Virus record (IMG/VR): IMGVR_UViG_3300030333_001155
Span: 1 to 20,213 of that record
DNA from: a virus
Direction: 5' to 3' (one strand)
Length of the DNA stretch: 20,213 nucleotides
Both the position numbers and the translations under genes were made by a program. The first letter of the stretch is position 1, and every line of letters starts with the position of its first letter. Below, one piece after another: positions 893 through 19,761 of the stretch. The notes beneath the pieces were generated by a model, which was given only the letters and a program-made list of their open reading frames with translations, was not told the origin of the DNA and made no database searches.

Positions 893-2476
893 CTAATTTG
901 TCTCGACAATTCCGTGACTTGTGGTGATTAATGTACCTGCTGCCGACACAGCGTTTGTGAGTGCAGATTTCGTCACCTTCACTGGGTCAATAATCCCCTC
1001 GTCCATCATAACCACGTCACTCTCACCAGTAAAGAAGTTATAACCACAGCCGTGATTGAAAGAATTAATTTCATTAATCATAATATCTGGAGAGAGCCCA
1101 GCGTTTCTTGACATTTGTCTGACCGGCTCACCACAAGCATCGAGCACAATCTGAACACCCACTTGCTCTGCTTGAGTCATCGCAGAGAAATCATTCTCCC
1201 TGACTGTTGCAACCGCATTCAAGAGAGCCACACCGCCGCCAGCAACGACGCCCTGTTCTTGAGCAGACTTCACTGCTTTGAGCGCGTCATCTGCTCGGTG
1301 TAGAGCCTCCATCATTTCAATCTCTGTGCTTCCACCCACCTTAATAATACCGATGCCACTAGCAAGGCGATTAATTCTTCGCTGGATTGCTTCACATTCT
1401 TTCATATTGTCTGTCTGTGTGATTTCCTCTTTAAGCTGATTGATTCTTTCCTCAATCCTATCGGGGTCACCGTGACCGCCAACAAAGGTAGACCAATTCT
1501 TTTTAGCCTCTACTGTGTATGCTTGCCCCATGTCAGTCAACTTGGTGTTCTTCAGTGTAACACCATTGGCTGGTCCTACAAGCGTTCCACCCACCGACAT
1601 AGCAAGGTCGTTCAAGCAGGCTCTGCGTTCCTCTCCATAGCCCGGTGCTTTAATTGCAGCCACCTTCATTGTACCTCGGGTCACATTAGTAATCAATGCA
1701 GCAAGGGCTTGGTCCTTCACGTCCTCAGCCACAATAGTCAGTGCTCGACCTTCTCTCGCGACCAACTGCAACACGGGAAACAACTCATCTACAGACGAGA
1801 TGACGCCATCATACACAAGAACCAGCGCGTTTTCTTGACGCATGGTCCACCGTCGCTTGTCAGTCACAAATGTTTTAGACAGGTAACCCGAATCAAACTG
1901 GAACCCTTCGATGAGTTCAAGGGTTGTATTCTGTGAATTGGCAGGCTCAATCTGAATTGCGCCGTGCTTGCCTACTTGGTCAATGGCTTGAGCAATCAGC
2001 CCGCCAAGCTTCTTATCTCCGTTAGCTGAGATGACAGCGATGTTCTCGACTTGCTCAAAAGATGTGAGCGGCTTTGCAACATTGGTCAGCGAGTTCAACA
2101 ACTGCGTTGTTGCAAAGTCCATGCCTCGTTTAATCTCAGTGGGAGACACGCCCGCAATCAAATGCTTGGTGGACTTATCTACAATGCTTCTCGCAATCAT
2201 AGTGGACGTGGTGGTTCCATCGCCAGCCTCATCTGCGGTAACCTGAGAAGCCTGCTTGACCACTTGGATACCCAGATTTTCAAACGGGTCTTCCGCGTCC
2301 ACGAATGAAGCAACGGTCACGCCGTCCTTCGTAATGACAGGGCGTTCGCCTGCCTTTTGCAGAATCACGTTTCGACCCTTTGGTCCAAGGGTTGCCCCTA
2401 CGTTATCTGCCAACAGGTTAACACCTGTTGCAATCTTTTTAACCAATGATAGATTAGAATCATATACCTTACTCAA
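893..2476 (-). CDS. groL: Chaperonin GroEL (60 kDa, group I)
   Basis: GroEL forms ring complexes that fold proteins in an ATP-driven cycle with a GroES co-chaperonin. This copy has 527 residues, against ~548 in E. coli, and is complete across equatorial, intermediate and apical domains. Visible signatures are NVGATLGPKGRNV (residues 25-37), TKDGVTVA with D51, and AGDGTTT with ATP-site D86. Also present are GYLSKTFV and AAIKAPGYGEERRA in the apical domain, and RADDALKA plus GVVAGGGVALL near the intermediate hinge, which carries the ATPase aspartate. The Gly-Met-rich C-terminal tail of bacterial GroEL is absent. The start is TTG at 2474-2476: GGAGGA lies 4 bases upstream and overlaps the end of the preceding gene, whereas the upstream GTG (2494) has no such site. 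Phage GroELs are known, for example in Pseudomonas phage EL. A GroES-like gene is at 16756-17040. The targets, perhaps capsid or enzyme subunits, are inferred. Confidence 0.97.
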   Translation of the reverse strand: MSKVYDSNLSLVKKIATGVNLLADNVGATLGPKGRNVILQKAGERPVITKDGVTVASFVDAEDPFENLGIQVVKQASQVTADEAGDGTTTSTMIARSIVDKSTKHLIAGVSPTEIKRGMDFATTQLLNSLTNVAKPLTSFEQVENIAVISANGDKKLGGLIAQAIDQVGKHGAIQIEPANSQNTTLELIEGFQFDSGYLSKTFVTDKRRWTMRQENALVLVYDGVISSVDELFPVLQLVAREGRALTIVAEDVKDQALAALITNVTRGTMKVAAIKAPGYGEERRACLNDLAMSVGGTLVGPANGVTLKNTKLTDMGQAYTVEAKKNWSTFVGGHGDPDRIEERINQLKEEITQTDNMKECEAIQRRINRLASGIGIIKVGGSTEIEMMEALHRADDALKAVKSAQEQGVVAGGGVALLNAVATVRENDFSAMTQAEQVGVQIVLDACGEPVRQMSRNAGLSPDIMINEINSFNHGCGYNFFTGESDVVMMDEGIIDPVKVTKSALTNAVSAAGTLITTSHGIVETN

Positions 2477-2477
2477 T

Positions 2478-4088
2478 TTATCCTCCGAGTTCACTCATTA
2501 AAATTGCTGCGCCGGGGTCAGCCGGTGGCTCAATAGCCTCAACATAGTCAGAAAGACTAATTCCAAAAAATTGCATCAACCCATATGTGCCGCCAGACAT
2601 GGCATCCTTGATACCTTCCAATAGTTTTTTTGCATTTTCCACGATACCCATTATACTATCTTGAAACCACTTTGTAAAGTCATTTATAAAACTTTTTAAC
2701 GACTCCATGAAGCCAGCCCAAAATTCTGCGCCCTTCTTAATAACACCCTTGCCGACCTCTGTAGCTTTGCGAATGAAATCACCCAGCCCAGCTTCATTCA
2801 ATTCCTGCTCTGTCAATAGTCCTTCAGAAACTGCCTGCGGCAAATTATCCTGTAACATTTTATCAAACTCAGCAAGATAGGCATTTTTTTCACCCTTGGC
2901 GTTCTTTATCTCTGCAATAATTGATGCCCGCAAAAGGTTGTAGCCTGTCTTTTTCTTTCCGCTAGCGACCTTTTCTTTCAAACTGTCTGAACGAAACTTT
3001 CCTCGCCAAGTCGCGGCTGAGGAAATCTTTTTGATATAAGCATCATCCAAATCATGAAAGACATGAAGCCCCTTGATGTTGGCACTACCAGTGTGCTTTG
3101 CTAACACGTCCTTTGGCTGTGTAATATAAATTGAATCGGCAATGTGGCTTGCACCCGGATTTATAACCTGCTTTGTCTTTGGGTCCAACCCACCAAATTT
3201 CACAGCAGCGGTCAGTGCCTCTTTATAGAAAGCAAACTCCAACTCTGGATTTTCAGTTGGATTCAGGGCACCCACAACCTCTGTTTCAATATTTTTCAGC
3301 GTTTCCTCAAGTTTTAAAATTTGCTCTGCGTGTTCCAGCAATTGTTTTGTTGTTGAAATTCCAACCATTTCTAACTTTTGTGCCGCAGTCTTGTCAAACT
3401 CTTCACCCTTTTCAGAGGCATCCTGCTTCTGCTTATCAAGACGCTGCGACATTTGCTGGCGAGCGTCTTTGTCCATTTGATATCCTTTCCCACCAACTTG
3501 TTTCAACGCTTCATCTGCATCGTCTGGTAGAGTATCTGCGGCGTTTATAGCTTTTTTTAGAACCCCAAGAGGTGCGCGAGCAATCCCCCGCTCCATCTTG
3601 CCAAGGGTGTCTTTTAGTGCATTTGCTTCTGCTGTGCGGTCGTCGGGCAAGCCTGCGGTCATTATAGCCGCAGCCATTGTAGCCTTTGCATCTCCCGGTC
3701 CAAAGCCAAAGAGCATTGCATTCGCCCCCATCTTCATTGAAACCCTATATTTACCAAGTTTAATATCAGCCTTAGAGGTGCTGTCTTTGCCACCAGCTTC
3801 AGCCCAAAACTTAGATATTTTTCCGCTTTCAAGTTTTTCAGCGCCACCCGAGATTTTATATCTTTGTTTAAGGTCGGGAACAGCAATCTTCACAAATCCT
3901 TGAAAGTGCTTTGGTTCCGAGCCATTCCACTCGTCCACAATCGCAGCCTCCAAGTCCTCGCCTCTGCCTGCCGTGCCCATATCCTCGTCAAGCATCTCTA
4001 AAATTAATTTATCAATAGCATCACGACCCCACTTGTCAGGGCGATTCTTTTTATAATAATTCTCAACGAGCAGACTCCAATCAGGCAT
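2478..4088 (-). CDS. 536-residue phage protein with possible PD-(D/E)XK nuclease-like N-terminal core
   Basis: I do not recognise a named family. Around residues 101-125 the protein reads DSTSKADIKLGKYRVSMKMG. The D108...S117-x-K119 spacing, with an acidic helix at GEDLEAAIVDEW (E47) before it, looks like a PD-(D/E)XK nuclease core in which the E/D-x-K is S-x-K. The middle (~190-290) is charged and probably coiled-coil. The segment around 440-510 is amphipathic (FWAGFMESLKSFINDFTKWF) and could contact membrane or other proteins. The C-terminus is hydrophilic. It lies between the amidase (TAA, 1-base gap) and groL, whose ribosome site overlaps its last two Gly codons, so the three are probably co-transcribed. 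It could be a virion protein rather than a nuclease. Gene certain; function inferred weakly. Confidence 0.9.
   Translation of the reverse strand: MPDWSLLVENYYKKNRPDKWGRDAIDKLILEMLDEDMGTAGRGEDLEAAIVDEWNGSEPKHFQGFVKIAVPDLKQRYKISGGAEKLESGKISKFWAEAGGKDSTSKADIKLGKYRVSMKMGANAMLFGFGPGDAKATMAAAIMTAGLPDDRTAEANALKDTLGKMERGIARAPLGVLKKAINAADTLPDDADEALKQVGGKGYQMDKDARQQMSQRLDKQKQDASEKGEEFDKTAAQKLEMVGISTTKQLLEHAEQILKLEETLKNIETEVVGALNPTENPELEFAFYKEALTAAVKFGGLDPKTKQVINPGASHIADSIYITQPKDVLAKHTGSANIKGLHVFHDLDDAYIKKISSAATWRGKFRSDSLKEKVASGKKKTGYNLLRASIIAEIKNAKGEKNAYLAEFDKMLQDNLPQAVSEGLLTEQELNEAGLGDFIRKATEVGKGVIKKGAEFWAGFMESLKSFINDFTKWFQDSIMGIVENAKKLLEGIKDAMSGGTYGLMQFFGISLSDYVEAIEPPADPGAAILMSELGG
2481..2486 (-). 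promoter_or_regulatory. Ribosome binding site that selects a TTG start for groL
   Basis: The minus strand carries GGAGGA formed by the last two Gly codons of the upstream gene, followed by its TAA stop, one A, and the TTG start at 2476. Translation of groL is therefore likely coupled to termination of the upstream gene. Confidence 0.7.
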
Positions 4089-6063: not shown

Positions 6064-7257
6064 TCATGATGAATAATTCTTCATCATTTCCCAAATGACT
6101 TTTTCAATCTTGCGGGTCAGCCTCTCTTGGACCGCAGCGTCGGGTGCCATGTCACGAATCGACGGGTCTTTTCCGTCCTTACCTTGGACACCAAACTTAT
6201 CGCCCACCACTTTCCTGTCCCGCTGGGCACCTTTAAGCGGTGCCTCGACACCACCCATGTCTGCAATCACCTTGACAGCCTTCACAATTGCCTCGTTGTC
6301 AGTGCCGATGCCTGCGGATGCCGCCGAACCAAAGTCCAGCATGTTCTGCCCAAGCTTGCCACCAGAAACCTTAACCAAAGCCTTCATGCCAGCCAAAATA
6401 GCTTGACCTGTGGGGTTCTTCGGTGGAACTACTTTCATCCAGTTTTGAAGGTCAGTCCTTGCTTGTTCCAGCAGTTGGGCAGCATACTCGGCTGAATATG
6501 GCGAGCCGTCCTTTGTCGTCATGGATTTGATATGCTCGTCAGTGACACCCTCTAAAGGCTTGCCCGTGCGAAGGTCGAACAGGTTGGCATAAATATCACC
6601 ACCCAGCATGGTCGCATATGGCTGGTCAGCCAACGCCTTGAAGTATCCACGCTCGGCTACAACCTGCTGTTGATACTTCTTTGAAATATTTGCGGTTTCT
6701 TGACCGACTGTGCGGTCACGCTCGATATCGCGGGAAATTGAAATATCGGTTGGTACATTGACCTGAAACACGGCAACGTCATAACCAATCTTCATAAGAT
6801 TCTTCATGCGTCCGACGATTTTCCCGACCTTCTCGCCAGTCGTGTCAAACACAATCGGATTTGCAATTGAAAGAAGATTGTGTGTATGTCCCTGTTCAGC
6901 ATTCTGTAGGACTTCACGCGCTGTCTGTTGAGCCTTTGTTAGTGGGCTGGCTTCTTTTTCTTTGTCCTTCTCCCACGTTCCTTCACTAAATTTCATGCTC
7001 ATTCCGAAATTCGGGAACACGTCCTCGATACGTTCATCTGGATTAGACGTTTTGAAGTCATCTGGGATACCGATTTGCTTAGACAGGAAGGACTTTCCTG
7101 CCCCTGCCGGTCCAAAGATAAAAATAGCCTTGAAAGGGTACTTGTTCTTTAAAATACTCTTCTCTTGTAGCACCTCGGGGGATTCCAGAATACCAGTCGT
7201 ATCCCTCTTGTATTCTTCCAGAACCAGTTTCCTGAGCGTTTCATAATTCAACTTCAT
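6064..7257 (-). CDS. P-loop NTPase, kinase-like (zeta-toxin/AAA-type fold), 397 aa
   Basis: The Walker A motif is clear: IFIFGPAGAGKSFLSKQ, with the P-loop GPAGAGKS at residues 49-56. Further on, IVFDTTGEKVGKIVGRM (~138-155) supplies a strand ending in Asp, as in the DxTG-type active sites of small kinases. SISRDIERDRTVGQ (~175-188) contains several arginines suited to a LID. This layout resembles zeta-toxin-like or polynucleotide-kinase-like phosphotransferases. The last ~150 residues (from about GMKALVKVSGGKLGQ) form a Gly/Asp-rich region of unknown fold. No antitoxin-like partner sits beside it, which argues against a classical toxin-antitoxin pair. The start at ATG 7255-7257 has AAGGAGAG upstream. 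NTP binding is well supported; the substrate is unknown. Confidence 0.88.
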   Translation of the reverse strand: MKLNYETLRKLVLEEYKRDTTGILESPEVLQEKSILKNKYPFKAIFIFGPAGAGKSFLSKQIGIPDDFKTSNPDERIEDVFPNFGMSMKFSEGTWEKDKEKEASPLTKAQQTAREVLQNAEQGHTHNLLSIANPIVFDTTGEKVGKIVGRMKNLMKIGYDVAVFQVNVPTDISISRDIERDRTVGQETANISKKYQQQVVAERGYFKALADQPYATMLGGDIYANLFDLRTGKPLEGVTDEHIKSMTTKDGSPYSAEYAAQLLEQARTDLQNWMKVVPPKNPTGQAILAGMKALVKVSGGKLGQNMLDFGSAASAGIGTDNEAIVKAVKVIADMGGVEAPLKGAQRDRKVVGDKFGVQGKDGKDPSIRDMAPDAAVQERLTRKIEKVIWEMMKNYSS

Positions 7258-8389: not shown

Positions 8390-8635
8390 TTATGGTGCGT
8401 AATCCTTCAATTTTCTGCGAAGCATAGGCAATAGCTTGTCCTCAATCTGACTCACTCGCACATGCGAAATACCTTCACGCTTCGCTACATCACGCAAAGT
8501 CATTGGTCCATTGTTGTCGATGGCTATGAAGGTACAATTCAAATCATCGCCATAATCAATCCAATACCGGCAAGCTGAATTTTCTTTTGGACATGGTTCA
8601 TTCCACTTCAAACACGTTTTACTACATTCTCTCAT
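8390..8635 (-). CDS. Small Cys-rich sigma-region-4-like HTH regulator
   Basis: The 81-residue product has two parts. The first half is cysteine-rich (C4, C8, C15, C22, C34) and could bind zinc. The second half, MTLRDVAKREGISHVRVSQI (residues 45-64) followed by EDKLLPMLRRKL, closely follows the sigma-70 region 4.2 helix-turn-helix that reads the -35 element. The ...R-x-S/R-Q-I-E... recognition-helix pattern is particularly telling. No other sigma regions are present, so it is either a stand-alone -35 binding factor, an appropriator of host RNA polymerase, or a repressor built on the same fold. It is translationally coupled to the upstream ribbon-helix-helix-like gene by an ATGA overlap, and lies just upstream of the acidic late-looking gene it might control. 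DNA binding is strongly suggested; the exact role is inferred. Confidence 0.85.
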   Translation of the reverse strand: MRECSKTCLKWNEPCPKENSACRYWIDYGDDLNCTFIAIDNNGPMTLRDVAKREGISHVRVSQIEDKLLPMLRRKLKDYAP

Positions 8636-11336: not shown

Positions 11337-14300
11337 CTATGCCAAAAGACGGAAATTGTGCCGAACGCTTCTTGAACTAAAACCCCACTGCTCACTATAG
11401 TCTAACTTAGCCATGTACGGTCTGTTAAGGTGAATTTTATCTACACCCTTTCTAACGCCCCAACACTTTATACTATTGATTGTGCTTGTGGAGTCGATGA
11501 CTTTAACAATCCAGTAATCTTTCCCATTCTTGGTCTTTTTCTCAATGACTTCTCTCGGAATAAACCACGACACAAGCAAATCTGGGTCAAAATCTCCGAG
11601 TGGGGGAATTCCATGTGCGTCAAGCTTATCCAAAACGTCACCAGTAATTACCAACTCAAAAGGAAAGATGCCAGTTAAATCGACCTGATACTCAATCATT
11701 TCTTCATCGGTAAAATCACCTTCTGGTGCATACAACTCAATATTCTCGCCAAACTTCTTCTTAGTCTTTGCTCGGTCTACAGCGACAGCAGACCAAAAGT
11801 GCTTCCGACCACTAAACCGCTCATCCATCAGACTATTCAATGCTTGGCTGCGAACCAGAACGTCCAACGCCTTCTTGTTCAGCTTAGAATACACCACGTC
11901 CTCATTAAACAAGAAATGTTCGATATTCTCAAACGGGCGATTGTTAAGAATCTGGTCGATAGCTGCGTCACCAAGACCCTTAACAGATGAGAAGGGTTGG
12001 ACCAAGCGACCATCATCAGCAATCTGCCAATCACGGTCAGACAAGTTGATATCAATTGGTGCTATCTCAAAGCCCATCTTCTTAGCCGCATTGATAGCAC
12101 GCTCCTTGCGCGACTCTGGCTCTTTATCTAAGAACGCTGCAATCCACTCGGCAGGATAATAATGGAATAGCCATGCACACTGATAAGACAGAATACTGTA
12201 CGAGACTGCATGTGACTTGTTGAAGCCGTAGCCTGAGAAGAACTCAAATGTCTCCCACAGCTTTTCGGAGTCACGAACTGTGATGCCCTTCTCCGAGCAC
12301 CCGTCAATGAATTTAACGCGCAATTTATTTTTAATGCCGCCCTTGCCTGTACCCTTCTTGGTCAAGACCTTCCGAAGCATGTTACCTTCGTCCAGTGTCA
12401 AGCCGCCCAGCTTGTGGGCAAGCAAAGCAATCTGCTCCTGAAAAATAAGGAACCCAAATGTCTCTTCGGTGACCTCCTTGACTGTCTCATTCAGATACTT
12501 GATAGCACTAGGGTTAGATTTTGCTTCAACATAATTTCTATCAACCTTTGCTGACAGAGGACCGGGACGGAAGATGGAGGTAATAGCAGAAATATCAATA
12601 ATACTTCTCGGCTTTGCGTTCACACAGAACGTCTGTGCTCCCGGCTCAGTGAACTGGAAGATGCCTGCCCATCGACCCTTATGAAAAACATTTTCATAAA
12701 CTTCTTGGTCGTCAAAATCAATTACATCAGGATGAAGCTTGTCGTCATAAAATTTGCGAACATCTGCAAAGCTTGGCTCCGCATTGTTATAGTGACGACG
12801 GAGAACATTCTTAATACAATTGTCCATCATCCGCAGTGAAGCAAGCCCAAGAATATCAAACTTAATGAACCCCATGGGCTCCAAGTGCCTGACGTTCTGA
12901 CCCTCGGACCACGGAGCCTGCTTGACGCCACCGCTCGTAATCAGCGGCATGTACTTGTCCAAATCCTCCGCGATGACAACACCACCTGCATGTCTGGAGC
13001 ATGAGCGCACCTGACCATAAAGAGCCTCAACGTGCGTCTTAACGTGGGGGTACTTGCGAAGGAAAGACTGCAATGATTCAGAGAACTCCATAACCTCTTC
13101 AAAGGTCGGAGCATATACGCCAGCAGTGATACCGTGCTTACGCTTGGCTTTGGGTGTAGCCTCATGGAGCATACGCCCGGTCACCGCATTCACCTCGACA
13201 AACGGAATTTGATAAAATTTGGAGATATCCTTGATTAGCGAACGCAACTGAAGCGTATTCCAATTGGAGATTGGAACAACAGTATTCTCACCCCACTCAT
13301 CAGCCAGACGCTCTTTCAACTCCATCGGCTCCGCAACATCATAATCAATATCGGGGTAATCCTTGGCATCAGAGCGCATGAAGCGGCTGAACAGCAGCCC
13401 ATACTTAATTGGGTCAACCTGTGTAATGTCCAAGACGTATGACACCAGCGAGCCAGCCGCAGAGCCGCGACCGGGACCAACCAATTGTGTCTCGACCGCC
13501 TTATCAGCCACAGCTTTCATTGTCAAGAAATACTTGCTGAACCCTCGACTGTCGATAACCTCTAATTCACGCTTCAGCCGGTCAATATACTCTTGACTAC
13601 CTGCAAGGTTCTTGGAGCGCAATCCATCAAGCGACATGGCAACCAAAGCCTGTGTTGCTGTCTTGCCCTCTGGTACTACAAAGTCAGGAAGGCGCACGGT
13701 GTTATCCGGCAGGAAGTCATCAATAAGCTTTGTTGCAATGTGGTGAGTCTCTGTGATACTATCTAACACAAGCTTGTCATCATATACAACGTCACATTCG
13801 GCTGCATAGTTTAGATACGATTCCCACATCTGGTCACCGTTCTTGGGATACAACTCATAGCCGACCTCATCCAAGCCAGCAGGCAACTCAGATGGAACCT
13901 CATCCTTGCGCCCGAGCCAGCCCAGCTTCTTGTAGAGAATCCGGTCTTTCCATGCATCAGGGTTGGGATAATGACTATCGGCTGTTGAAATCAGCTTGAT
14001 GCCGAACTCTTTGTGCATCTGAATAACATATTGATTGAGCACATGCTGCTCTGGAATGTTATTCCACTGAAGTTCTCCATACCACCTGTCGCCAAAGATT
14101 TTTTGCATCTGGCGGGTCGTTTCACGCATTTCTTCCAATACGCCGTCTTCATCAAATCCTGTGCGATTGCCGTCATCGTCATACACCGCGTTTCGCCACA
14201 TGCACCCGGCATAAGCCCCACCAAGGCAAGCAGAAGCAGCAATAACGCCCTCAGAGTGCTTGGCAAGCAACTCATAATCAACGCGGGGGAAGCGGTAATA

Positions 14301-14774
14301 ATTATCGCCCGAAAACGACTCAGACACCATCTTAAAGATGTTGTTCAAGCCTGTCTGGTTCTGAGCCAGAAGAATAAGGTGGTTGCGGCGATTGACCAAG
14401 CCCTTGAAGTGTCGCTGCTCATCTTCGACAACCGCACCACCAGTGCTGCCGTCCTTCAGCGCAGAAGCGTTCTTCTTGACCTTCTTGGCTTCTTCGTAAT
14501 CGCCCTTCCACCCCTCGATTGATGGATGGAAATATGCCTCGACGCCATAAATCGGCTTGAACTCTTTGCCTTCCGCTCGCATTTTCTTGGTATGCAACAC
14601 CTGATAGGCAAGCCCGTTGCAATTGCCGTGGTCGGTGAGTGCGAGTGCATCCATGCCGTTGGCATAAGCGTACTCCATGTGCTCTTGGGGGTAGCCAAGG
14701 GCATCAAACGGAGAGCCCGCTACGGAATGAGCATGAAGCCCCACAAACGGAATAGATGATTCATTTCGACTCAC
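11337..14774 (-). CDS. dnaE: DNA polymerase III alpha subunit (DnaE type, family C) with intact PHP domain
   Basis: This is a family C replicative polymerase of 1145 residues, against 1160 for E. coli DnaE. Residues 1-~275 form a PHP domain retaining all nine metal-ligand positions: H14, H16, D24, H49, E79, H132, C183, D266, H268. That suggests a working proofreading exonuclease. The palm has VGPGRGSAAGS (432-442), PDIDYD with catalytic D475 and D477, HAGGVVIA (595-602), and KFDILGL with the third catalytic Asp, D640. SIFRPGPL, FQEQIALLAH, YGFNKSHAVSY and PAEWIAAF continue the fingers. After a helix-hairpin-helix region the protein ends soon after an OB-like segment; I see neither an obvious clamp motif nor a tau-binding tail. 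The start is GTG with AAGGAGG six bases upstream, overlapping the previous gene by 14 bases. No separate exonuclease subunit is in the window. Confidence 0.97.
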   Translation of the reverse strand: MSRNESSIPFVGLHAHSVAGSPFDALGYPQEHMEYAYANGMDALALTDHGNCNGLAYQVLHTKKMRAEGKEFKPIYGVEAYFHPSIEGWKGDYEEAKKVKKNASALKDGSTGGAVVEDEQRHFKGLVNRRNHLILLAQNQTGLNNIFKMVSESFSGDNYYRFPRVDYELLAKHSEGVIAASACLGGAYAGCMWRNAVYDDDGNRTGFDEDGVLEEMRETTRQMQKIFGDRWYGELQWNNIPEQHVLNQYVIQMHKEFGIKLISTADSHYPNPDAWKDRILYKKLGWLGRKDEVPSELPAGLDEVGYELYPKNGDQMWESYLNYAAECDVVYDDKLVLDSITETHHIATKLIDDFLPDNTVRLPDFVVPEGKTATQALVAMSLDGLRSKNLAGSQEYIDRLKRELEVIDSRGFSKYFLTMKAVADKAVETQLVGPGRGSAAGSLVSYVLDITQVDPIKYGLLFSRFMRSDAKDYPDIDYDVAEPMELKERLADEWGENTVVPISNWNTLQLRSLIKDISKFYQIPFVEVNAVTGRMLHEATPKAKRKHGITAGVYAPTFEEVMEFSESLQSFLRKYPHVKTHVEALYGQVRSCSRHAGGVVIAEDLDKYMPLITSGGVKQAPWSEGQNVRHLEPMGFIKFDILGLASLRMMDNCIKNVLRRHYNNAEPSFADVRKFYDDKLHPDVIDFDDQEVYENVFHKGRWAGIFQFTEPGAQTFCVNAKPRSIIDISAITSIFRPGPLSAKVDRNYVEAKSNPSAIKYLNETVKEVTEETFGFLIFQEQIALLAHKLGGLTLDEGNMLRKVLTKKGTGKGGIKNKLRVKFIDGCSEKGITVRDSEKLWETFEFFSGYGFNKSHAVSYSILSYQCAWLFHYYPAEWIAAFLDKEPESRKERAINAAKKMGFEIAPIDINLSDRDWQIADDGRLVQPFSSVKGLGDAAIDQILNNRPFENIEHFLFNEDVVYSKLNKKALDVLVRSQALNSLMDERFSGRKHFWSAVAVDRAKTKKKFGENIELYAPEGDFTDEEMIEYQVDLTGIFPFELVITGDVLDKLDAHGIPPLGDFDPDLLVSWFIPREVIEKKTKNGKDYWIVKVIDSTSTINSIKCWGVRKGVDKIHLNRPYMAKLDYSEQWGFSSRSVRHNFRLLA

Positions 14775-15024
14775 TCAAGCCCTCCTTTGTCCTAATTCGG
14801 ACTTCCACTGCATTCAAAATCTCTTTAGCCTCTGCAATCAACTCTTGAGCAACTGCGATATCATCTATATTATCACAATTATCAGATTTGTCAAGCAAAA
14901 TTACAAATTCTTCCAAAAAAGTTATTAAGCTGTTGTCGAGTTCATAAAATCGCGTCGGCAACTCCGCAATATCTTTACAAGCATACGAAACCTCGTCGTA
15001 TGCTCTTTCAATTGGATTCCTCAC
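14761..15024 (-). CDS. Small helical protein preceding dnaE (87 aa), unknown function
   Basis: This encodes 87 residues from a GTG start at 15022-15024 with GGGAGG five bases upstream. The protein is helical and acidic in the middle (LDKSDNCDNIDDIAVAQELI) and ends with a basic-to-polar tail. No motif is recognised. It overlaps the upstream putative nucleotidyltransferase gene by 17 bases and the dnaE start by 14 bases, so translation of all three is linked. Its coding sequence also carries one promoter-like pair (14867-14894). Confidence 0.7.
   Translation of the reverse strand: MRNPIERAYDEVSYACKDIAELPTRFYELDNSLITFLEEFVILLDKSDNCDNIDDIAVAQELIAEAKEILNAVEVRIRTKEGLSESK
14781..14787 (-). promoter_or_regulatory. 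Consensus ribosome site fixing the GTG start of dnaE
   Basis: AAGGAGG lies six bases before the GTG at 14774, inside the end of the preceding gene. No in-frame ATG is close, so this sets the dnaE start. Confidence 0.75.
14867..14894 (-). promoter_or_regulatory. Intragenic sigma-70-like promoter candidate before dnaE
   Basis: The minus strand reads TTGACA (14889-14894), a 16-base spacer, and TAATAT (14867-14872), followed by AGAT. It lies inside the 87-residue gene and ~85 bases before the dnaE start. The -35 is perfect and the -10 is 4 of 6. The AT-rich setting makes chance possible. Confidence 0.4.
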
Positions 15025-15886
15025 TCACGCCTCCCATTTTGTTCCACTTCTTAGGTTTAAAGAAATCAGGCTTTGTTAGTGATTCGCTGCCTGATAAATA
15101 TTTCGTCAATCCATCCCATGAATCCACTCTGTGATACCATGGAACTTCAATCATAGAATCTGTATCTATTATAACATCTGAGAACACTTTGTCAAGTGAA
15201 AAGTTTCTCGCAGACCATCTTTTTTCAATTGGCAGGCGATTTCCGTCTGAGTCGTGTACTGATGTTGCCTCTTCGCGGACACGGCGTCTACATCTTTTAA
15301 AATCTTCGCCATCAAAAGTGAATCCAAGATACTCGCCCGTTTTCACAGATGCACCATTGTACGTCAAACAGAAAGTTCCATTTCTGGAAATTTTGCGGCG
15401 AAAAATTTTGAGCAATTCGGGATTATAGATTCCATACGGAAATGCACAATAAAATTTATCTGGAATAAGCCACTTGCTGATGCGCTTGGAAATATAATAT
15501 GCACTGAGCGCACCATACAGGGCAGACCACCCCAAGCAGTCTCTTCGGTCCCGGTCCTTTGGATGCACCGGCACATAGTAAATTGGAATGCGCCGTCGTT
15601 TCTCAGACTGAAACATTCCCTTTTGCAGCAGGGAGTTGGGGTCAAAAATCCACTCTCCCATGCGCTCTTTAATTAGTGGCTGCATGTCCCTGTGGCACAC
15701 AACCCAGATGGTTTCTGCCCCTGCCCACGCGCACTCTAACACTGCACGCTCAACAGCCAAATAATTTTTTCCTATCGGCATTAAACTGTCGTGCCATGGC
15801 ATATCAAAGTCCAACGGCTGTCCAGCAACAGGAACGACACCAGCCAAGTGAAATGCAGAAGCGTTTTGCTCACCACTCTCTATCAC
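15008..15886 (-). CDS. Putative nucleotidyltransferase-fold (GT-A-like) phage protein
   Basis: This encodes about 292 residues. The first ~75 residues follow the layout of sugar-nucleotide transferases. A strand and loop (HLAGVVPVAG) are followed by P-x-H-D-S-L-M-P-I in place of the P-K-x-L-x-P-I segment. A helix then leads to a second strand (LAVERAVLECAWAGAETIWV), and finally VCHRDMQPLIKERMG. The normal glycine-arginine signature loop is not present, so catalysis is unproven. Later regions (KYLSG..., PWYHRVDSWDGL) are not recognised. The GTG at 15886 has AAGG eight bases upstream; a GTG at 15895 is the alternative. It overlaps the unknown gene upstream by 17 bases and the next gene by a similar amount. 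I recall similar proteins in large marine phages without a known function. Confidence 0.8.
   Translation of the reverse strand: MIESGEQNASAFHLAGVVPVAGQPLDFDMPWHDSLMPIGKNYLAVERAVLECAWAGAETIWVVCHRDMQPLIKERMGEWIFDPNSLLQKGMFQSEKRRRIPIYYVPVHPKDRDRRDCLGWSALYGALSAYYISKRISKWLIPDKFYCAFPYGIYNPELLKIFRRKISRNGTFCLTYNGASVKTGEYLGFTFDGEDFKRCRRRVREEATSVHDSDGNRLPIEKRWSARNFSLDKVFSDVIIDTDSMIEVPWYHRVDSWDGLTKYLSGSESLTKPDFFKPKKWNKMGGVSEESN
15168..15195 (-). promoter_or_regulatory. Intragenic promoter with exact consensus -35 and -10
   Basis: The minus strand reads TTGACA (15190-15195), a 16-base spacer and TATAAT (15168-15173), then AGAT. Both hexamers match consensus exactly. It sits in the C-terminal coding part of the putative nucleotidyltransferase gene and would drive the 87-residue gene and dnaE. 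Transcription would begin near 15161. Confidence 0.6.
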
Positions 15887-16640
15887 GTCGGACACCTTGA
15901 ATTAAATAATTTAAATAGCCACTCTTTGAGAGCGGATAATTGATAGACGAACATTCCATTATTTCAAACCCGTCTGGCAAGCTTGAATACACTCTTTTAC
16001 TCAGCGGATAAACCACCCGCTTACGCGATTCTAATCGAATTGGTAAATACCTGCCCGCGCCATTACCAGCACCCTTGATTCCCGCCTCCCTCATCGCCTC
16101 TTCCGTCTTGAGTCTGGTAACCAATTCTGAGTATTCAAAGTCTTGTAACTGTTCATCCGTAAGGTGACTTATCGTACAAGCATCTTTCAAATTATGATTA
16201 CCATCAATTCTCTCTGACGGATAAAAGTTTACGCTTTTAATAAAGTCAGAGTTCCAGACATGAAGAGCGTGCAGGCTATGCTTCATTCCACTCCGAACAT
16301 CTATCCAATCAAGAACTTCATTTAGGGCGTCTTTACGCTCTGGCACCGGCATCCCTTCAATACTCTTGTCGTCAAAAATAAACACTGAGGTATTTTTAAC
16401 TTCGTGAACCTTGTGCCCAACAGTTATTCTCAAACCTTCGTCAGTCATTCTAATTTGAGAAACTTTATCTCCAAATTTAATTAGCCCAGCAAGAGACAGG
16501 CAAAAATATAAATGATGCCACTCTTCCACATGCCCGGTGAATCGGTGTGGAGGTTGTGGCTTTAGATACACAAGGGGCGTGCCGTGCTCAAAAGCATAGC
16601 GCATCGCTCCAATGGTACTTCCTACCACCAACCCTTGCAT
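15870..16640 (-). CDS. Hypothetical protein, 256 aa, unknown function
   Basis: The ATG at 16638-16640 is preceded by GGAGAGG. The N-terminus MQGLVVGSTIGAMRYAFEHG then TPLVYLKPQPPHRF looks like a strand-glycine-helix-strand start reminiscent of a Rossmann-type nucleotide-binding fold, but no complete motif follows. There is a strand-rich middle (MTDEGLRITVGHKVHEVKN, then VFIFDDKSI), and a His/Trp-containing segment (HALHVWNSDFIKSVNFYPSE). It overlaps the putative nucleotidyltransferase by 17 bases and presumably acts in the same process. I do not recognise it. Confidence 0.8.
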   Translation of the reverse strand: MQGLVVGSTIGAMRYAFEHGTPLVYLKPQPPHRFTGHVEEWHHLYFCLSLAGLIKFGDKVSQIRMTDEGLRITVGHKVHEVKNTSVFIFDDKSIEGMPVPERKDALNEVLDWIDVRSGMKHSLHALHVWNSDFIKSVNFYPSERIDGNHNLKDACTISHLTDEQLQDFEYSELVTRLKTEEAMREAGIKGAGNGAGRYLPIRLESRKRVVYPLSKRVYSSLPDGFEIMECSSINYPLSKSGYLNYLIQGVRRDREW

Positions 16641-16652
16641 ACAACCTCTCCA

Positions 16653-16793
16653 CTAGAATAAATCAGAAATAACCAGCAGCACAATAAAGATTTCAAAAGC
16701 TACCGTGCCAAGGGCGCACACACTCAAGTATGCGAGCCCAAGGCGAACGAGCACCCTATTGACCACTGGGTTTGAGTTGTCTGCAAACAACAT
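16653..16793 (-). CDS. Small membrane protein (46 aa)
   Basis: The likely start is the ATG at 16791-16793, with AAGAGA upstream; a GTG at 16838 and an ATG at 16832 would extend the overlap with the GroES-like gene. The C-terminal ~25 residues are strongly hydrophobic (AYLSVCALGTVAFEIFIVLL) and should span the membrane once or twice. The first ~20 residues are polar with arginines that favour the cytoplasmic side. The size and composition resemble small phage membrane proteins that alter the host envelope, but no specific role is visible. It overlaps the GroES-like gene by 38 bases, and its stop is 12 bases before the next gene. Confidence 0.6.
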   Translation of the reverse strand: MLFADNSNPVVNRVLVRLGLAYLSVCALGTVAFEIFIVLLVISDLF

Positions 16794-17040
16794 AATTCTC
16801 TTGTACAAAATGAAATTGACTGCCAAGAGCATCAACACAGAGCAGCATGTTACCGGGGAAAACTACAACGCTGCCAACGTCCTTCGACGAGAAGTGTTCG
16901 CAATTCTTCGCCACCTCTTTGATAACCCCTGTCTCCCACTCTTGAAGAGCCTTGTAATCTTCTGGCATGAGAACACCCCCCGAATCGGGGGGAGTCTGCT
17001 GGACAATATCAACTTTAATATGCCGGTTCATCGGTGTCAT
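16756..17040 (-). CDS. GroES-like co-chaperonin
   Basis: The 94-residue product has the size and layout of GroES (97 in E. coli). A strand (HIKVDIVQQ, residues 7-15) leads to a Gly-containing loop TPPDSGGVLMPEDYK (16-30), at the place of the GroES mobile loop that docks onto GroEL. Then come ETGVIKEV (36-43; compare GEVLAVG), KDVGSVVVF (53-61; compare KVGDIVIF) and FHFVQENYVV (76-85; compare VLIMSESDIL). The loop VLM corresponds to the GroES IVL tripeptide. A phage GroEL is encoded at 893-2476, giving a likely partner. The start is ATG 17038-17040 with GAGG five bases upstream, rather than a GTG two codons earlier. Similarity is by pattern, so another small beta-barrel protein remains possible. 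Confidence 0.72.
   Translation of the reverse strand: MTPMNRHIKVDIVQQTPPDSGGVLMPEDYKALQEWETGVIKEVAKNCEHFSSKDVGSVVVFPGNMLLCVDALGSQFHFVQENYVVCRQLKPSGQ
16976..16992. repeat. G/C hairpin inside the GroES-like mobile-loop codons
   Basis: Arms CCCCCCGA (16976-16983) and TCGGGGGG (16985-16992) are a perfect inverted repeat around one base. In the mRNA this gives a 6-bp C/G stem with a 5-base loop. It encodes the P-P-D-S-G-G of the predicted mobile loop. Confidence 0.6.
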
Positions 17041-17048
17041 AAGCACCT

Positions 17049-17391: not shown

Positions 17392-19761
17392 TTATCCACA
17401 CTTTGCATCGCACGACTCACAAACCTTGTCGCTTGGAGTCTCACCATCTTGAATATAATTCTTTAGGATGCGAGCGATGCATCTTGCAAAGCTGAACATG
17501 TCGCTGTTTTTATCTTTCTGTAGTTGCTCAACCATGAACCTTGGACGCGCCCCGTGACGCAACCCCAGCGAAATCATGCGAGTGAAAGAAGCATTGCTGG
17601 GATTGTCGAACACCTTGACCACATCTTTAATGTTGATTGTATCGCCATTATAGCCGAACGATAAGTCATAACGATTCATGCGCGTCTTGTAGCTGTGCTT
17701 GGTTAGGCGACCTTTATCATATTTCTTTGGAATTTCAATCAAGCTTGCTTCGCCAGCCAAAACTTCATATGGCTTCCCAGCAAGAATACCCACCAAGACA
17801 ACCCACTTCTCGCCTTGAATGGTGGTGTGGTGAATGTCGCAATCAAGGATTTGTGGGCGCTTCGGTGCCTCATGGACAGGGAACGGCTCTGCCTGCGTAG
17901 ACTCTTCTTTGGTTACCAAAACGCCAGACCGACTACCATCCACATAAACTGTGACACCCTTCAGCCCCCGACGCCAACCTTCTAAGTAAAGCTGACCCAC
18001 GGTGGCTGGCTCGGTGCCTGCTGGAAGATTGATAGTAGAACTAATGGCGTGGTCAACATTATCTTGAATAGCTTGCTGAATCTCGATGCGACGGGTCCAA
18101 TCAATCTGGTCCGACTCAACAAAGAAGCTTGGCAATTCCTCGCCCTCGTTTGCTTCGCGCCACTGCTGGACGTTGTGGTGGAAAACTTCAAACTCTTTCC
18201 AGCGGTCACCAAGTTCATCCACAAAGTCAGCCTCTACATCAGCCTCGTCATGACTCATCTTGCGGCGACGAATATAAGAATTCCTAAACACCGGCTCCAA
18301 GCCAGAAGAGGTTTGAGAAAGAATTGACACAGACCCAGTTGGTGCATTGGTAAGGAGAGAAATGTTTCTCCTACCATGTCGAGATATAGCACGCTTCAGT
18401 GTCTCTGGAAGCCGCTTAATATATCCGTTGTCCTTTTCCTTGCTCCACTTAAACACCGGAAACTGCCCACGCTCAGTAGACAGGTTGACGCTCTCCTGAT
18501 ATGCTGTATCCCTCAAGCAAGTATAAATTCTGGAAATCATAGCCAAGCCGTCATCGGAATCATAACCCATGTTAAGGCACGCTAGTGCATCAGCCAGCCC
18601 ATGAGTTCCTAATCCTGTCCGGCGTCCATCTCTTGCTGCAACATACAGCTTGCTCCACAGAGCCTTTTCATCTGGCGTGTCAGCCAACTCAATAATTGAC
18701 TGCAACTTCTCAAGTTCAAGGTCAACCAAGTCGTCAGAAAGTCGCATCGCTGCGGAAGCAACCTCGGTAAACTTTTTAAAATCAAATTTCGCCTTGCCGG
18801 TGAACGGAGACTGGACAAAGTTTTTTAAATTAATAGAAATCAGACGACAGGAATCATAAGCCGAAAGAGGAATTTCAGCACAGGGGTTGGTGCAAATGGT
18901 GGCAAACCCGTCATCAGCATATGAGTGTGCAGGAAGATTATTAATAATGTTGTCCCACATCAGGATGCCCGGTTCAGCAGTCGTTGTTGCGGACTCAACA
19001 ATAATATCCCACAAAGCTTTCGCATCAATGTCCTTGGTGTACGTTGGCTCATCCGAATCAACTGGAAACTGAAGTGTGAATTTACTATTGTTCTGAACAG
19101 CCTGCATGAAGCTGTCACTAATCTTAACGGAGACATTCGCGCCCGTGACCTTCGTCAAGTCACGCTTCATTGTGACAAACTCTTCAATGTCAGGATGCCT
19201 CACGTCCATAGTAATCATGAGAGCACCACGGCGTCCATTCTGCCCAATCATTCGACAGACGTAAGAATAAAAATCTGCGAAACTCCATGCTCCTGTCGTA
19301 GTACCAGCCGAATTATTTACTGGTGTGCCGTCCGGTCGCAAATCAGATAGGTCAAGCCCAACACCGCACCGACGCTTAAATAAATTAGCCAAATCTCTCC
19401 CGGCGTTAATGATGGAAGAGATATTGTCGGAAGGTGACTCAACCACCACGCAGTTGGATAGCGATACATTAACATAACTATTACCAATCCCCATCATCGG
19501 TGAACCTTGGGGTACGATATATTTGAAATTATCAAAATATTCGCTAATCTTCTCTTCGGTCAGTGCTCGGGGTCCACCGTATTTTCCTTCAATTCTCGCA
19601 AACTCTGAAGCCATGCGACTGTGCATGTCTTTCGGAGTTTTTTCTACAAAATTTCCCTCCTTATCTCGGAGGCAGTATTTGGTGATGAAAACATTTGTAG
19701 CAAGTTCATCACCACCAAAGTATTCAAGGGTCGCTTCCCTTACTTCTGACTCATTATACAT
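17392..19761 (-). CDS. nrdJ: Class II (adenosylcobalamin-dependent) ribonucleotide reductase
   Basis: It reduces ribonucleotides to deoxyribonucleotides using a B12 radical, without a small subunit or oxygen. The 789-residue protein has SLSNC with C104 (first redox cysteine) and TNPCAEIP (N292, radical cysteine C294, E296). YDSC has C305, the second redox cysteine. NAPTGSVSILSQTSSGLEPVF and an INLPAGTEP-type segment follow. Near residue 650 a TSCPD-like domain begins (GEKWVVLVGILAGKPYEVLAG), characteristic of NrdJ. The end is CESCDAKCG with C781, C784 and C788, the tail that re-reduces the active site. No small-subunit or activase gene is next to it. The ATG directly follows the helicase stop (TAAATG), so the two are co-transcribed. 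It supplies dNTPs for phage replication; the host must supply or import B12. Confidence 0.95.
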   Translation of the reverse strand: MYNESEVREATLEYFGGDELATNVFITKYCLRDKEGNFVEKTPKDMHSRMASEFARIEGKYGGPRALTEEKISEYFDNFKYIVPQGSPMMGIGNSYVNVSLSNCVVVESPSDNISSIINAGRDLANLFKRRCGVGLDLSDLRPDGTPVNNSAGTTTGAWSFADFYSYVCRMIGQNGRRGALMITMDVRHPDIEEFVTMKRDLTKVTGANVSVKISDSFMQAVQNNSKFTLQFPVDSDEPTYTKDIDAKALWDIIVESATTTAEPGILMWDNIINNLPAHSYADDGFATICTNPCAEIPLSAYDSCRLISINLKNFVQSPFTGKAKFDFKKFTEVASAAMRLSDDLVDLELEKLQSIIELADTPDEKALWSKLYVAARDGRRTGLGTHGLADALACLNMGYDSDDGLAMISRIYTCLRDTAYQESVNLSTERGQFPVFKWSKEKDNGYIKRLPETLKRAISRHGRRNISLLTNAPTGSVSILSQTSSGLEPVFRNSYIRRRKMSHDEADVEADFVDELGDRWKEFEVFHHNVQQWREANEGEELPSFFVESDQIDWTRRIEIQQAIQDNVDHAISSTINLPAGTEPATVGQLYLEGWRRGLKGVTVYVDGSRSGVLVTKEESTQAEPFPVHEAPKRPQILDCDIHHTTIQGEKWVVLVGILAGKPYEVLAGEASLIEIPKKYDKGRLTKHSYKTRMNRYDLSFGYNGDTINIKDVVKVFDNPSNASFTRMISLGLRHGARPRFMVEQLQKDKNSDMFSFARCIARILKNYIQDGETPSDKVCESCDAKCG

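What the first reader, a model, noticed from the sequence alone, without database searches (positions are those of the whole stretch)
15008..16640. Two-gene module: nucleotidyltransferase-fold protein plus unknown partner
The overlapping pair 15870-16640 and 15008-15886 has a GT-A-like first segment with an altered catalytic loop (P-W-H-D-S-L-M-P-I) and a partner with a Rossmann-like start. They are likely to work together, perhaps in modification of DNA, RNA or a cell-surface molecule. I know no established function for either, so it is a prime candidate for a new system.
Basis: inference. Interest (0 to 1): 0.6.

Follow-up and report, generated by a model that had tools for sequence, protein, structure and literature searches.

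The report
Orphan gene pair in marine phages
Hundreds of uncultured ocean phage contigs carry the same two adjacent genes next to their DNA-copying genes; the pair is always present or absent together, and both proteins look like old metabolic enzymes whose usual nucleotide-binding parts have been rewritten, so they probably do one unknown job together.

Summary
Two overlapping, codirectional genes, P2 (15870-16640) and P1 (15008-15886), are under strong purifying selection. The co-occurrence test was run from both sides. P1-anchored: P2 lies upstream on the same strand in 126 of 126 IMG/VR loci that reach far enough. DnaE-anchored: of 118 loci with at least 3 kb upstream, 112 carry both genes, 6 (5 contigs, two DnaE lineages) carry neither, none carries one. 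This is a real, dispensable two-gene module in the replication cluster (FEN-DnaB-RNR-GroES-P2-P1-DnaE-dUTPase) of an uncultured marine phage lineage. P1 has the GT-A fold of GalU/RmlA nucleotidyltransferases, but the phosphate-binding Arg and Lys align with acidic residues (Asp/Glu-29 in 95 of 95 sequences, mostly Asp-36) and the metal-Asp strand reads P-Y-G. P2 has a compact flavoenzyme (renalase/NGTO-like) fold with a modified Rossmann loop. Neither family is in Pfam, PHROGs or NCBIfam. The 5-hydroxymethyl-uracil modification route is not supported: no thymidylate-synthase-type gene in 15 large relatives. My best reading is a heteromeric enzyme with new active-site residues acting on nucleotides or DNA. 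The module is firmly shown; the chemistry is inference.

The parts
15870..16640 (-). P2: 256-aa protein with compact flavoenzyme-like (GR2/renalase/NGTO-like) fold; Rossmann loop G-x-[S/T]-x-x-A; family-specific D111-W112, K152-D153, S158, G187-x-x-G190-x-x-N-G194, R208
15008..15886 (-). P1: about 292-aa protein with GT-A sugar-nucleotidyltransferase fold (GalU/RmlA type); the catalytic signature G-x-G-T-R...P-K is replaced by Q-x-L-[D/E]-F...P-W-H-D-x-L-x-P. The open frame extends to GTG 15895
11337..14774 (-). DnaE-type DNA polymerase III alpha with PHP domain, conserved downstream neighbour of the pair (context, not part of the module)
16756..17046 (-). 95-aa-class GroES/Cpn10-like protein, conserved neighbour upstream of P2 (context)
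   Evidence: (PF00166, E 0.0087, below the curated cut-off)
17392..19761 (-). Ribonucleotide reductase large subunit (context)
14761..15024 (-). 87-aa protein between P1 and DnaE, present only in close relatives (context)

Best explanation
P2 and P1 are the two subunits, or two consecutive activities, of one phage enzyme made with the replication proteins. P1 descends from a GalU/RmlA-type nucleotidyltransferase. It keeps the GT-A fold and a conserved loop on the base-binding side, but has exchanged the triphosphate-gripping Arg and Lys for conserved acids and has lost the metal-Asp motif, so it cannot run the ancestral reaction in the usual way. P2 is a small flavoenzyme-fold protein with a conserved, modified phosphate-binding loop. 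The most likely role is making a modified nucleotide, or modifying bases in phage DNA, in step with replication, with P2 providing redox or lyase chemistry and P1 holding the nucleotide or base. Shown: the module, its joint presence and absence, the folds (by prediction), the motif replacement, the selection. Inferred: complex formation, catalysis, substrate, and the DNA/nucleotide role.
For: Joint presence/absence. Fixed order P2-P1; gap at most 0 in 102 of 124 loci. Inheritance tracks DnaE and DnaB (distance correlations 0.73-0.82). Place in a nucleotide/replication cluster. Folds; GalU profile match. In P1, position 29 is acidic in 95/95 and position 36 is Asp in 89 of 96, while the segments facing the ancestral active site are more conserved than average (0.68-0.71 against 0.57). 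In P2, the Rossmann loop is among the most conserved segments (top 1% of windows). The nearest phage flavoenzyme in the fold search is gp47 of PaMx11, a DNA thymidine-modification lyase. Dispensability and mosaic loss suit a DNA-protection function better than an essential replisome part.
Against: No substrate, cofactor or product evidence. P2 lacks the second Gly of GxGxxG and a conserved acid at the end of strand 2, and shows no significant sequence homology to gp47/NGTO (hhalign E 0.037). None of 15 large records has a thymidylate-synthase-type enzyme, so the known 5hmU-based routes are not available. P1's segment conservation is only moderately above other windows (9-17% of windows are as conserved).
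Confidence: 0.35

Rival explanations
1. Pseudoenzyme complex: both proteins have lost catalysis and act as a binding or scaffolding pair that blocks or redirects a host factor (host takeover or counter-defence).
For: Both ancestral catalytic signatures are lost or altered. The module is dispensable and lost as a unit in at least two DnaE lineages. P2 evolves faster than the rest (mean identity 0.34 against 0.66 for DnaE), as host-facing proteins often do.
Against: P1 is highly conserved, and the segments that faced the ancestral active site are above average in conservation. Host-facing factors usually turn over in location and presence more than this pair does.
Confidence: 0.25
2. Divergent sugar-nucleotide enzymes serving glycan synthesis (virion, cell surface or glycosylated DNA).
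For: P1's nearest relatives by profile and fold are GalU/RmlA. Large relatives carry NDP-sugar epimerases/dehydratases (14 of 15) and GT2 glycosyltransferases (13 of 15), but recognised sugar nucleotidyltransferases in only 2 of 15.
Against: P1 lacks the Arg, Lys and metal-Asp motifs needed for nucleotidyl transfer. The pair sits in the replication cluster, not in the glycan cassette.
Confidence: 0.18
3. Replisome accessory proteins of the phage DnaE polymerase, using old metabolic folds as structural parts.
For: Immediately upstream of DnaE in most loci; inherited with DnaE and DnaB.
Against: Relatives with 66-70% identical DnaE and the same cluster lack both genes, so the polymerase does not need them. 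In some loci other genes lie between P1 and DnaE. Neither family is notably basic (median pI about 7).
Confidence: 0.12
4. An ordinary known enzyme pair too diverged for the libraries to recognise.
For: Folds are known.
Against: No hits in Pfam, PHROGs or NCBIfam beyond noise, even from distant members. Catalytic motifs are replaced across the whole family, not only in the window.
Confidence: 0.1

Closest known systems
Sugar nucleotidyltransferases GalU / RmlA (Pfam NTP_transferase PF00483)
   Same: GT-A fold; N-terminal IPVAG strand, helix and AGxxxIWIV strand align with E. coli GalU/GalF/RfbA
   Different: G-x-G-T-R and the catalytic Lys replaced by acidic residues; metal-Asp motif replaced by P-Y-G; not recognised by the Pfam model except for two members at best E 0.02
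PaMx11 gp47 / NGTO, flavin-dependent lyase of 5-N-alpha-glycinylthymidine (PDB 8z2o, 8z79)
   Same: Compact flavoenzyme fold of similar size, phage-encoded
   Different: No significant sequence relation; lacks intact GxGxxG and NGTO's C-terminal TGGAKNGT motif; no thymidylate-synthase homologue in the large relatives
Renalase and related GR2 flavoenzymes
   Same: Best solved-structure matches to the P2 model
   Different: About 10-12% identity, TM about 0.4 or lower; cofactor-binding signature only partly kept
BFVD entries A0A516LBJ9 and A0A516M785
   Same: Same P2 family by structure (TM up to 0.85, 26-28% identity), unannotated viral proteins
   Different: Their genomic context was not available, so whether P1 is beside them is unknown

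Membership tests
Sugar nucleotidyltransferase (NTP_transferase, PF00483) - P1 | GT-A fold | tested here: met
   AlphaFold2 pLDDT 86.8, Foldseek to RmlA E 1e-8; hhalign E 2e-5 over 55 columns
Sugar nucleotidyltransferase (NTP_transferase, PF00483) - P1 | Signature GxGTR...(P)K holding the NTP phosphates | tested here: not met
   Aligned positions are D/E29 in 95/95 and mostly D36 in the family
Sugar nucleotidyltransferase (NTP_transferase, PF00483) - P1 | Metal-binding Asp after the central strand (GD/PD) | tested here: not met
   F-P-Y-G in nearly all members; position inferred from the predicted strand 147-150, as the sequence alignment covers only the N-terminus
Sugar nucleotidyltransferase (NTP_transferase, PF00483) - P1 | Above the curated Pfam score | tested here: not met
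   No hit for the window protein; 2 of 35 members at best E 0.02
GR2-type FAD-dependent oxidoreductase - P2 | Fold | tested here: met
   Foldseek E 3e-5 to renalase, probability 1.0, although TM is only about 0.4
GR2-type FAD-dependent oxidoreductase - P2 | GxGxxG loop | tested here: inconclusive
   G-x-[S/T/G/D/N]-L-x-A; first Gly in 94 of 95 sequences with a residue, third Gly is mostly Ala; segment strongly conserved
GR2-type FAD-dependent oxidoreductase - P2 | Acidic residue at the end of strand 2 (ribose contact) | tested here: not met
   No conserved acid at residues 25-30
GR2-type FAD-dependent oxidoreductase - P2 | Bound flavin / redox activity | not testable with these tools
   Needs purified protein
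NGTO / 5hmU-derived thymidine hypermodification system | Sequence homology of the flavin lyase | tested here: not met
   hhalign A2 against the NGTO family, E 0.037, N-terminus only
NGTO / 5hmU-derived thymidine hypermodification system | dUMP hydroxymethylase (thymidylate-synthase fold) | tested here: not met
   PF00303 in 0 of 15 large records, control genomes rang
NGTO / 5hmU-derived thymidine hypermodification system | 5hmU DNA kinase (PF18723) | tested here: inconclusive
   0 of 15, but no control rang
Two-gene functional module | Joint presence and joint absence | tested here: met
   Both in 112 of 118 DnaE-anchored loci, neither in 6, one alone in 0; 126 of 126 P1-anchored loci

The most novel reading that the evidence does not exclude
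A new two-subunit enzyme in which a nucleotidyltransferase fold with a charge-reversed active site and a mini-flavoenzyme jointly make a nucleotide or DNA-base modification not yet described, used by an abundant uncultured marine phage lineage to mark or protect its DNA.
Probability: 0.25. Interest if true: 0.8.

Novelty: new variant of a known kind. Interest (0 to 1): 0.5.

Why it matters
The pair is conserved across a large, uncultured marine phage lineage, sits among its replication genes, and combines two remodelled metabolic folds absent from the family libraries searched. Natural relatives lacking exactly these two genes give a built-in comparison. If it is a DNA or nucleotide modification enzyme, it adds a chemistry and explains part of how ocean phages protect their genomes. 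If it is a pseudoenzyme pair, it is a clear case of coordinated repurposing.

Tried and rejected
tblastn of P1 (three members) and P2 (two members) against 50,697 phage records: no match. Single-protein P2 scan of IMG/VR: nothing, because P2 diverges fast; the A2 profile had no stretch conserved enough to scan; a P2 from another clade found 9 loci, too few and too close to the P1-anchored set to test P2's independent distribution. Profile against solved-structure sequences: only chance hits for P1, none for P2. phrog_8205 hit (E 3e-4, 43 residues of one member): judged chance. Homology of P2 to UDP-galactopyranose mutase: only the generic Rossmann start. 5hmU hypermodification: thymidylate-synthase family absent. 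YerA41, which has a heavily modified thymidine (PMC9023294): no P1/P2 homologue in its first 100 kb (the last 45 kb were not read). GTDB genomes: only 4 MAG contigs with P1, probably binned phage, so no host assignment. Controls in E. coli through the genome search were not possible.

Full report
WHAT IS THERE. The window is a whole 20,213-base virus record from IMG/VR; all its recognisable genes are on the minus strand. The finding covers two overlapping genes: P2 (15870-16640, 256 aa) and P1 (15008-15886, about 292 aa; the frame is open to a GTG at 15895). Relatives align at the 15886 start, and L007 has ATG there. Both are under purifying selection: dN/dS 0.03-0.07 for P1 and 0.07-0.13 for P2 against four close relatives.

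DISTRIBUTION. Among the fetched P1 loci, every one with enough upstream DNA (126 of 126) has P2 upstream on the same strand. The exceptions are contigs cut at the gene. In 102 of 124 the genes touch or overlap; in 18 more than 150 bases lie between them, mostly other genes. The converse test was anchored on DnaE. Of 118 DnaE loci with at least 3 kb upstream, 112 carry both genes and 6 carry neither; none carries one. The 6 are 5 contigs: L146 (seen again as L217), L218, L219 and L221, whose DnaEs are 82-100% identical to L146's, and L226, whose DnaE is 69% identical to it. They keep the surrounding cluster where read, and no P1 or P2 was found elsewhere in those contigs (the contigs are 15-30 kb fragments). 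Some loci are repeats of the same contig or near-identical contigs, so the counts are not independent events; the absence is in at least two lineages.

CONTEXT. The conserved order is 5'-3' exonuclease, DnaB helicase, ribonucleotide reductase, a GroES-like protein, P2, P1, DnaE, dUTPase, IMPDH/GMP reductase. Pairwise identities of P1 and P2 correlate with those of DnaE and DnaB at 0.73-0.82, so the pair is inherited mainly with the replication genes. Yet the natural joint absences show that replication does not require it. The closest phage records have DnaE at only about 28-32% identity, and no phage record matched P1 or P2. This is an uncultured lineage, and its host is unknown.

P1. The model (pLDDT 86.8, pTM 0.87) matches RmlA-type nucleotidyltransferases (E 1e-8, 8-14% identity, TM about 0.5). 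Against E. coli GalU, GalF and RfbA, hhalign gives E 2e-5 over 55 N-terminal columns: the IPVAG strand, the loop and the AGxxxIWIV strand are in register. In that register the Arg of G-T-R and the following Lys of the ancestral enzymes fall on acids. Position 29 is D or E in all 95 sequences with a residue, and position 36 is D in 89 of 96. The strand that carries the metal-binding Asp reads F-P-Y-G (this placement rests on the predicted strand order, not on the sequence alignment). The segments corresponding to the active site are more conserved than the protein average, though not exceptionally (9-17% of equal-length windows are as conserved). The reading is an exchanged rather than decayed site; this is inference.

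P2. The model (pLDDT 86.8, pTM 0.77) matches renalase and other flavoenzymes, and the PaMx11 gp47 flavin-dependent lyase. The loop V-[IV]-G-x-[S/T]-L-x-A is among the most conserved segments (top 1% of windows), but the second Gly and a strand-2 acid are not kept, so flavin binding is plausible and unproven. Other near-invariant positions are D111, W112, S158, G187, G190, G194 and R208. Sequence comparison with the gp47 family is not significant. Two unannotated viral proteins in BFVD belong to the P2 family by fold (TM up to 0.85).

NO KNOWN FAMILY. The window proteins and 35 P1 / 37 P2 relatives gave only noise in Pfam and PHROGs, and sampled members likewise in NCBIfam. Two P1 members touch NTP_transferase at best E 0.02.

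WHAT IT COULD DO. Fifteen large records (77-206 kb) have no thymidylate-synthase-type gene (control rang), so the known 5-hydroxymethyl-uracil route to hypermodified thymidine is not supported for them; some relatives carry ThyX instead. The 5hmU kinase search also found nothing in fifteen large records, but had no positive control. Thirteen of fifteen carry GT2 glycosyltransferases and fourteen carry NDP-sugar epimerases or dehydratases, while only two carry a recognised sugar nucleotidyltransferase. These lie in glycan-type cassettes elsewhere in the genome, so a sugar-nucleotide role for P1 is a live rival. My preferred reading is a heteromeric enzyme acting on nucleotides or DNA (0.35), followed by a pseudoenzyme pair acting on the host (0.25), a glycan role (0.18), a replisome accessory (0.12), and an unrecognised ordinary enzyme pair (0.10).

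VERDICT. The two-gene module is real, conserved, jointly gained or lost, and not filed in the family libraries searched. The folds are known; the motif replacements fail the defining tests of the parent families. The function is not established.

Noticed in passing
L146 5899-6986, L226 5714-6665, L219 6223-6998: Relatives lacking both P2 and P1 have, between the GroES-like gene and DnaE, only small accessory genes (a lytic transglycosylase plus an 80-aa ORF, or unrelated ORFs): natural empty sites for the module.
   Followed up: yes
region between RNR/GroES-like gene and P2 in many loci (e.g. L064, L079, L075, L035): Hot spot for accessory genes: ThyX, SAM lyase, SLT transglycosylase, amidase-like proteins and others inserted at the same place.
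   Followed up: partly
window 17392-19761 versus L061 1200-3059: Two different ribonucleotide reductases (about 800 aa and 619 aa) occupy the same syntenic slot in different relatives.
   Followed up: partly
L014 5675-6664; also cluster c56 in L015, L049, L096, L097: Some relatives encode an adenylosuccinate-synthetase homologue (PF00709) in the cluster; whether it is a PurZ-type enzyme for 2-aminoadenine DNA was not tested.
   Followed up: no
L297-L304 (large relatives): Glycan cassette with NDP-sugar dehydratases/epimerases, GT2 glycosyltransferases and, by eye, sulfotransferase-, NeuB/NeuA- and fucosyltransferase-like genes, far from the replication cluster.
   Followed up: partly
window 893-2494 and 16756-17046: Phage-encoded GroEL-like protein (by eye) plus a separate GroES-like gene (weak Cpn10 match) conserved beside P2 in about 105 loci.
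   Followed up: partly
window 11337-14774: The DnaE of this lineage is at most about 32% identical to any of 50,697 phage records although hundreds of marine contigs carry it: a large lineage without an isolate.
   Followed up: partly
window 8390-8635: 81-aa protein with a weak sigma-70 region 4 match (E 2e-4, just below the cut-off), possible phage transcription factor.
   Followed up: no
window 6064-7257: 397-aa protein with weak AAA/zeta-toxin-like kinase matches.
   Followed up: no
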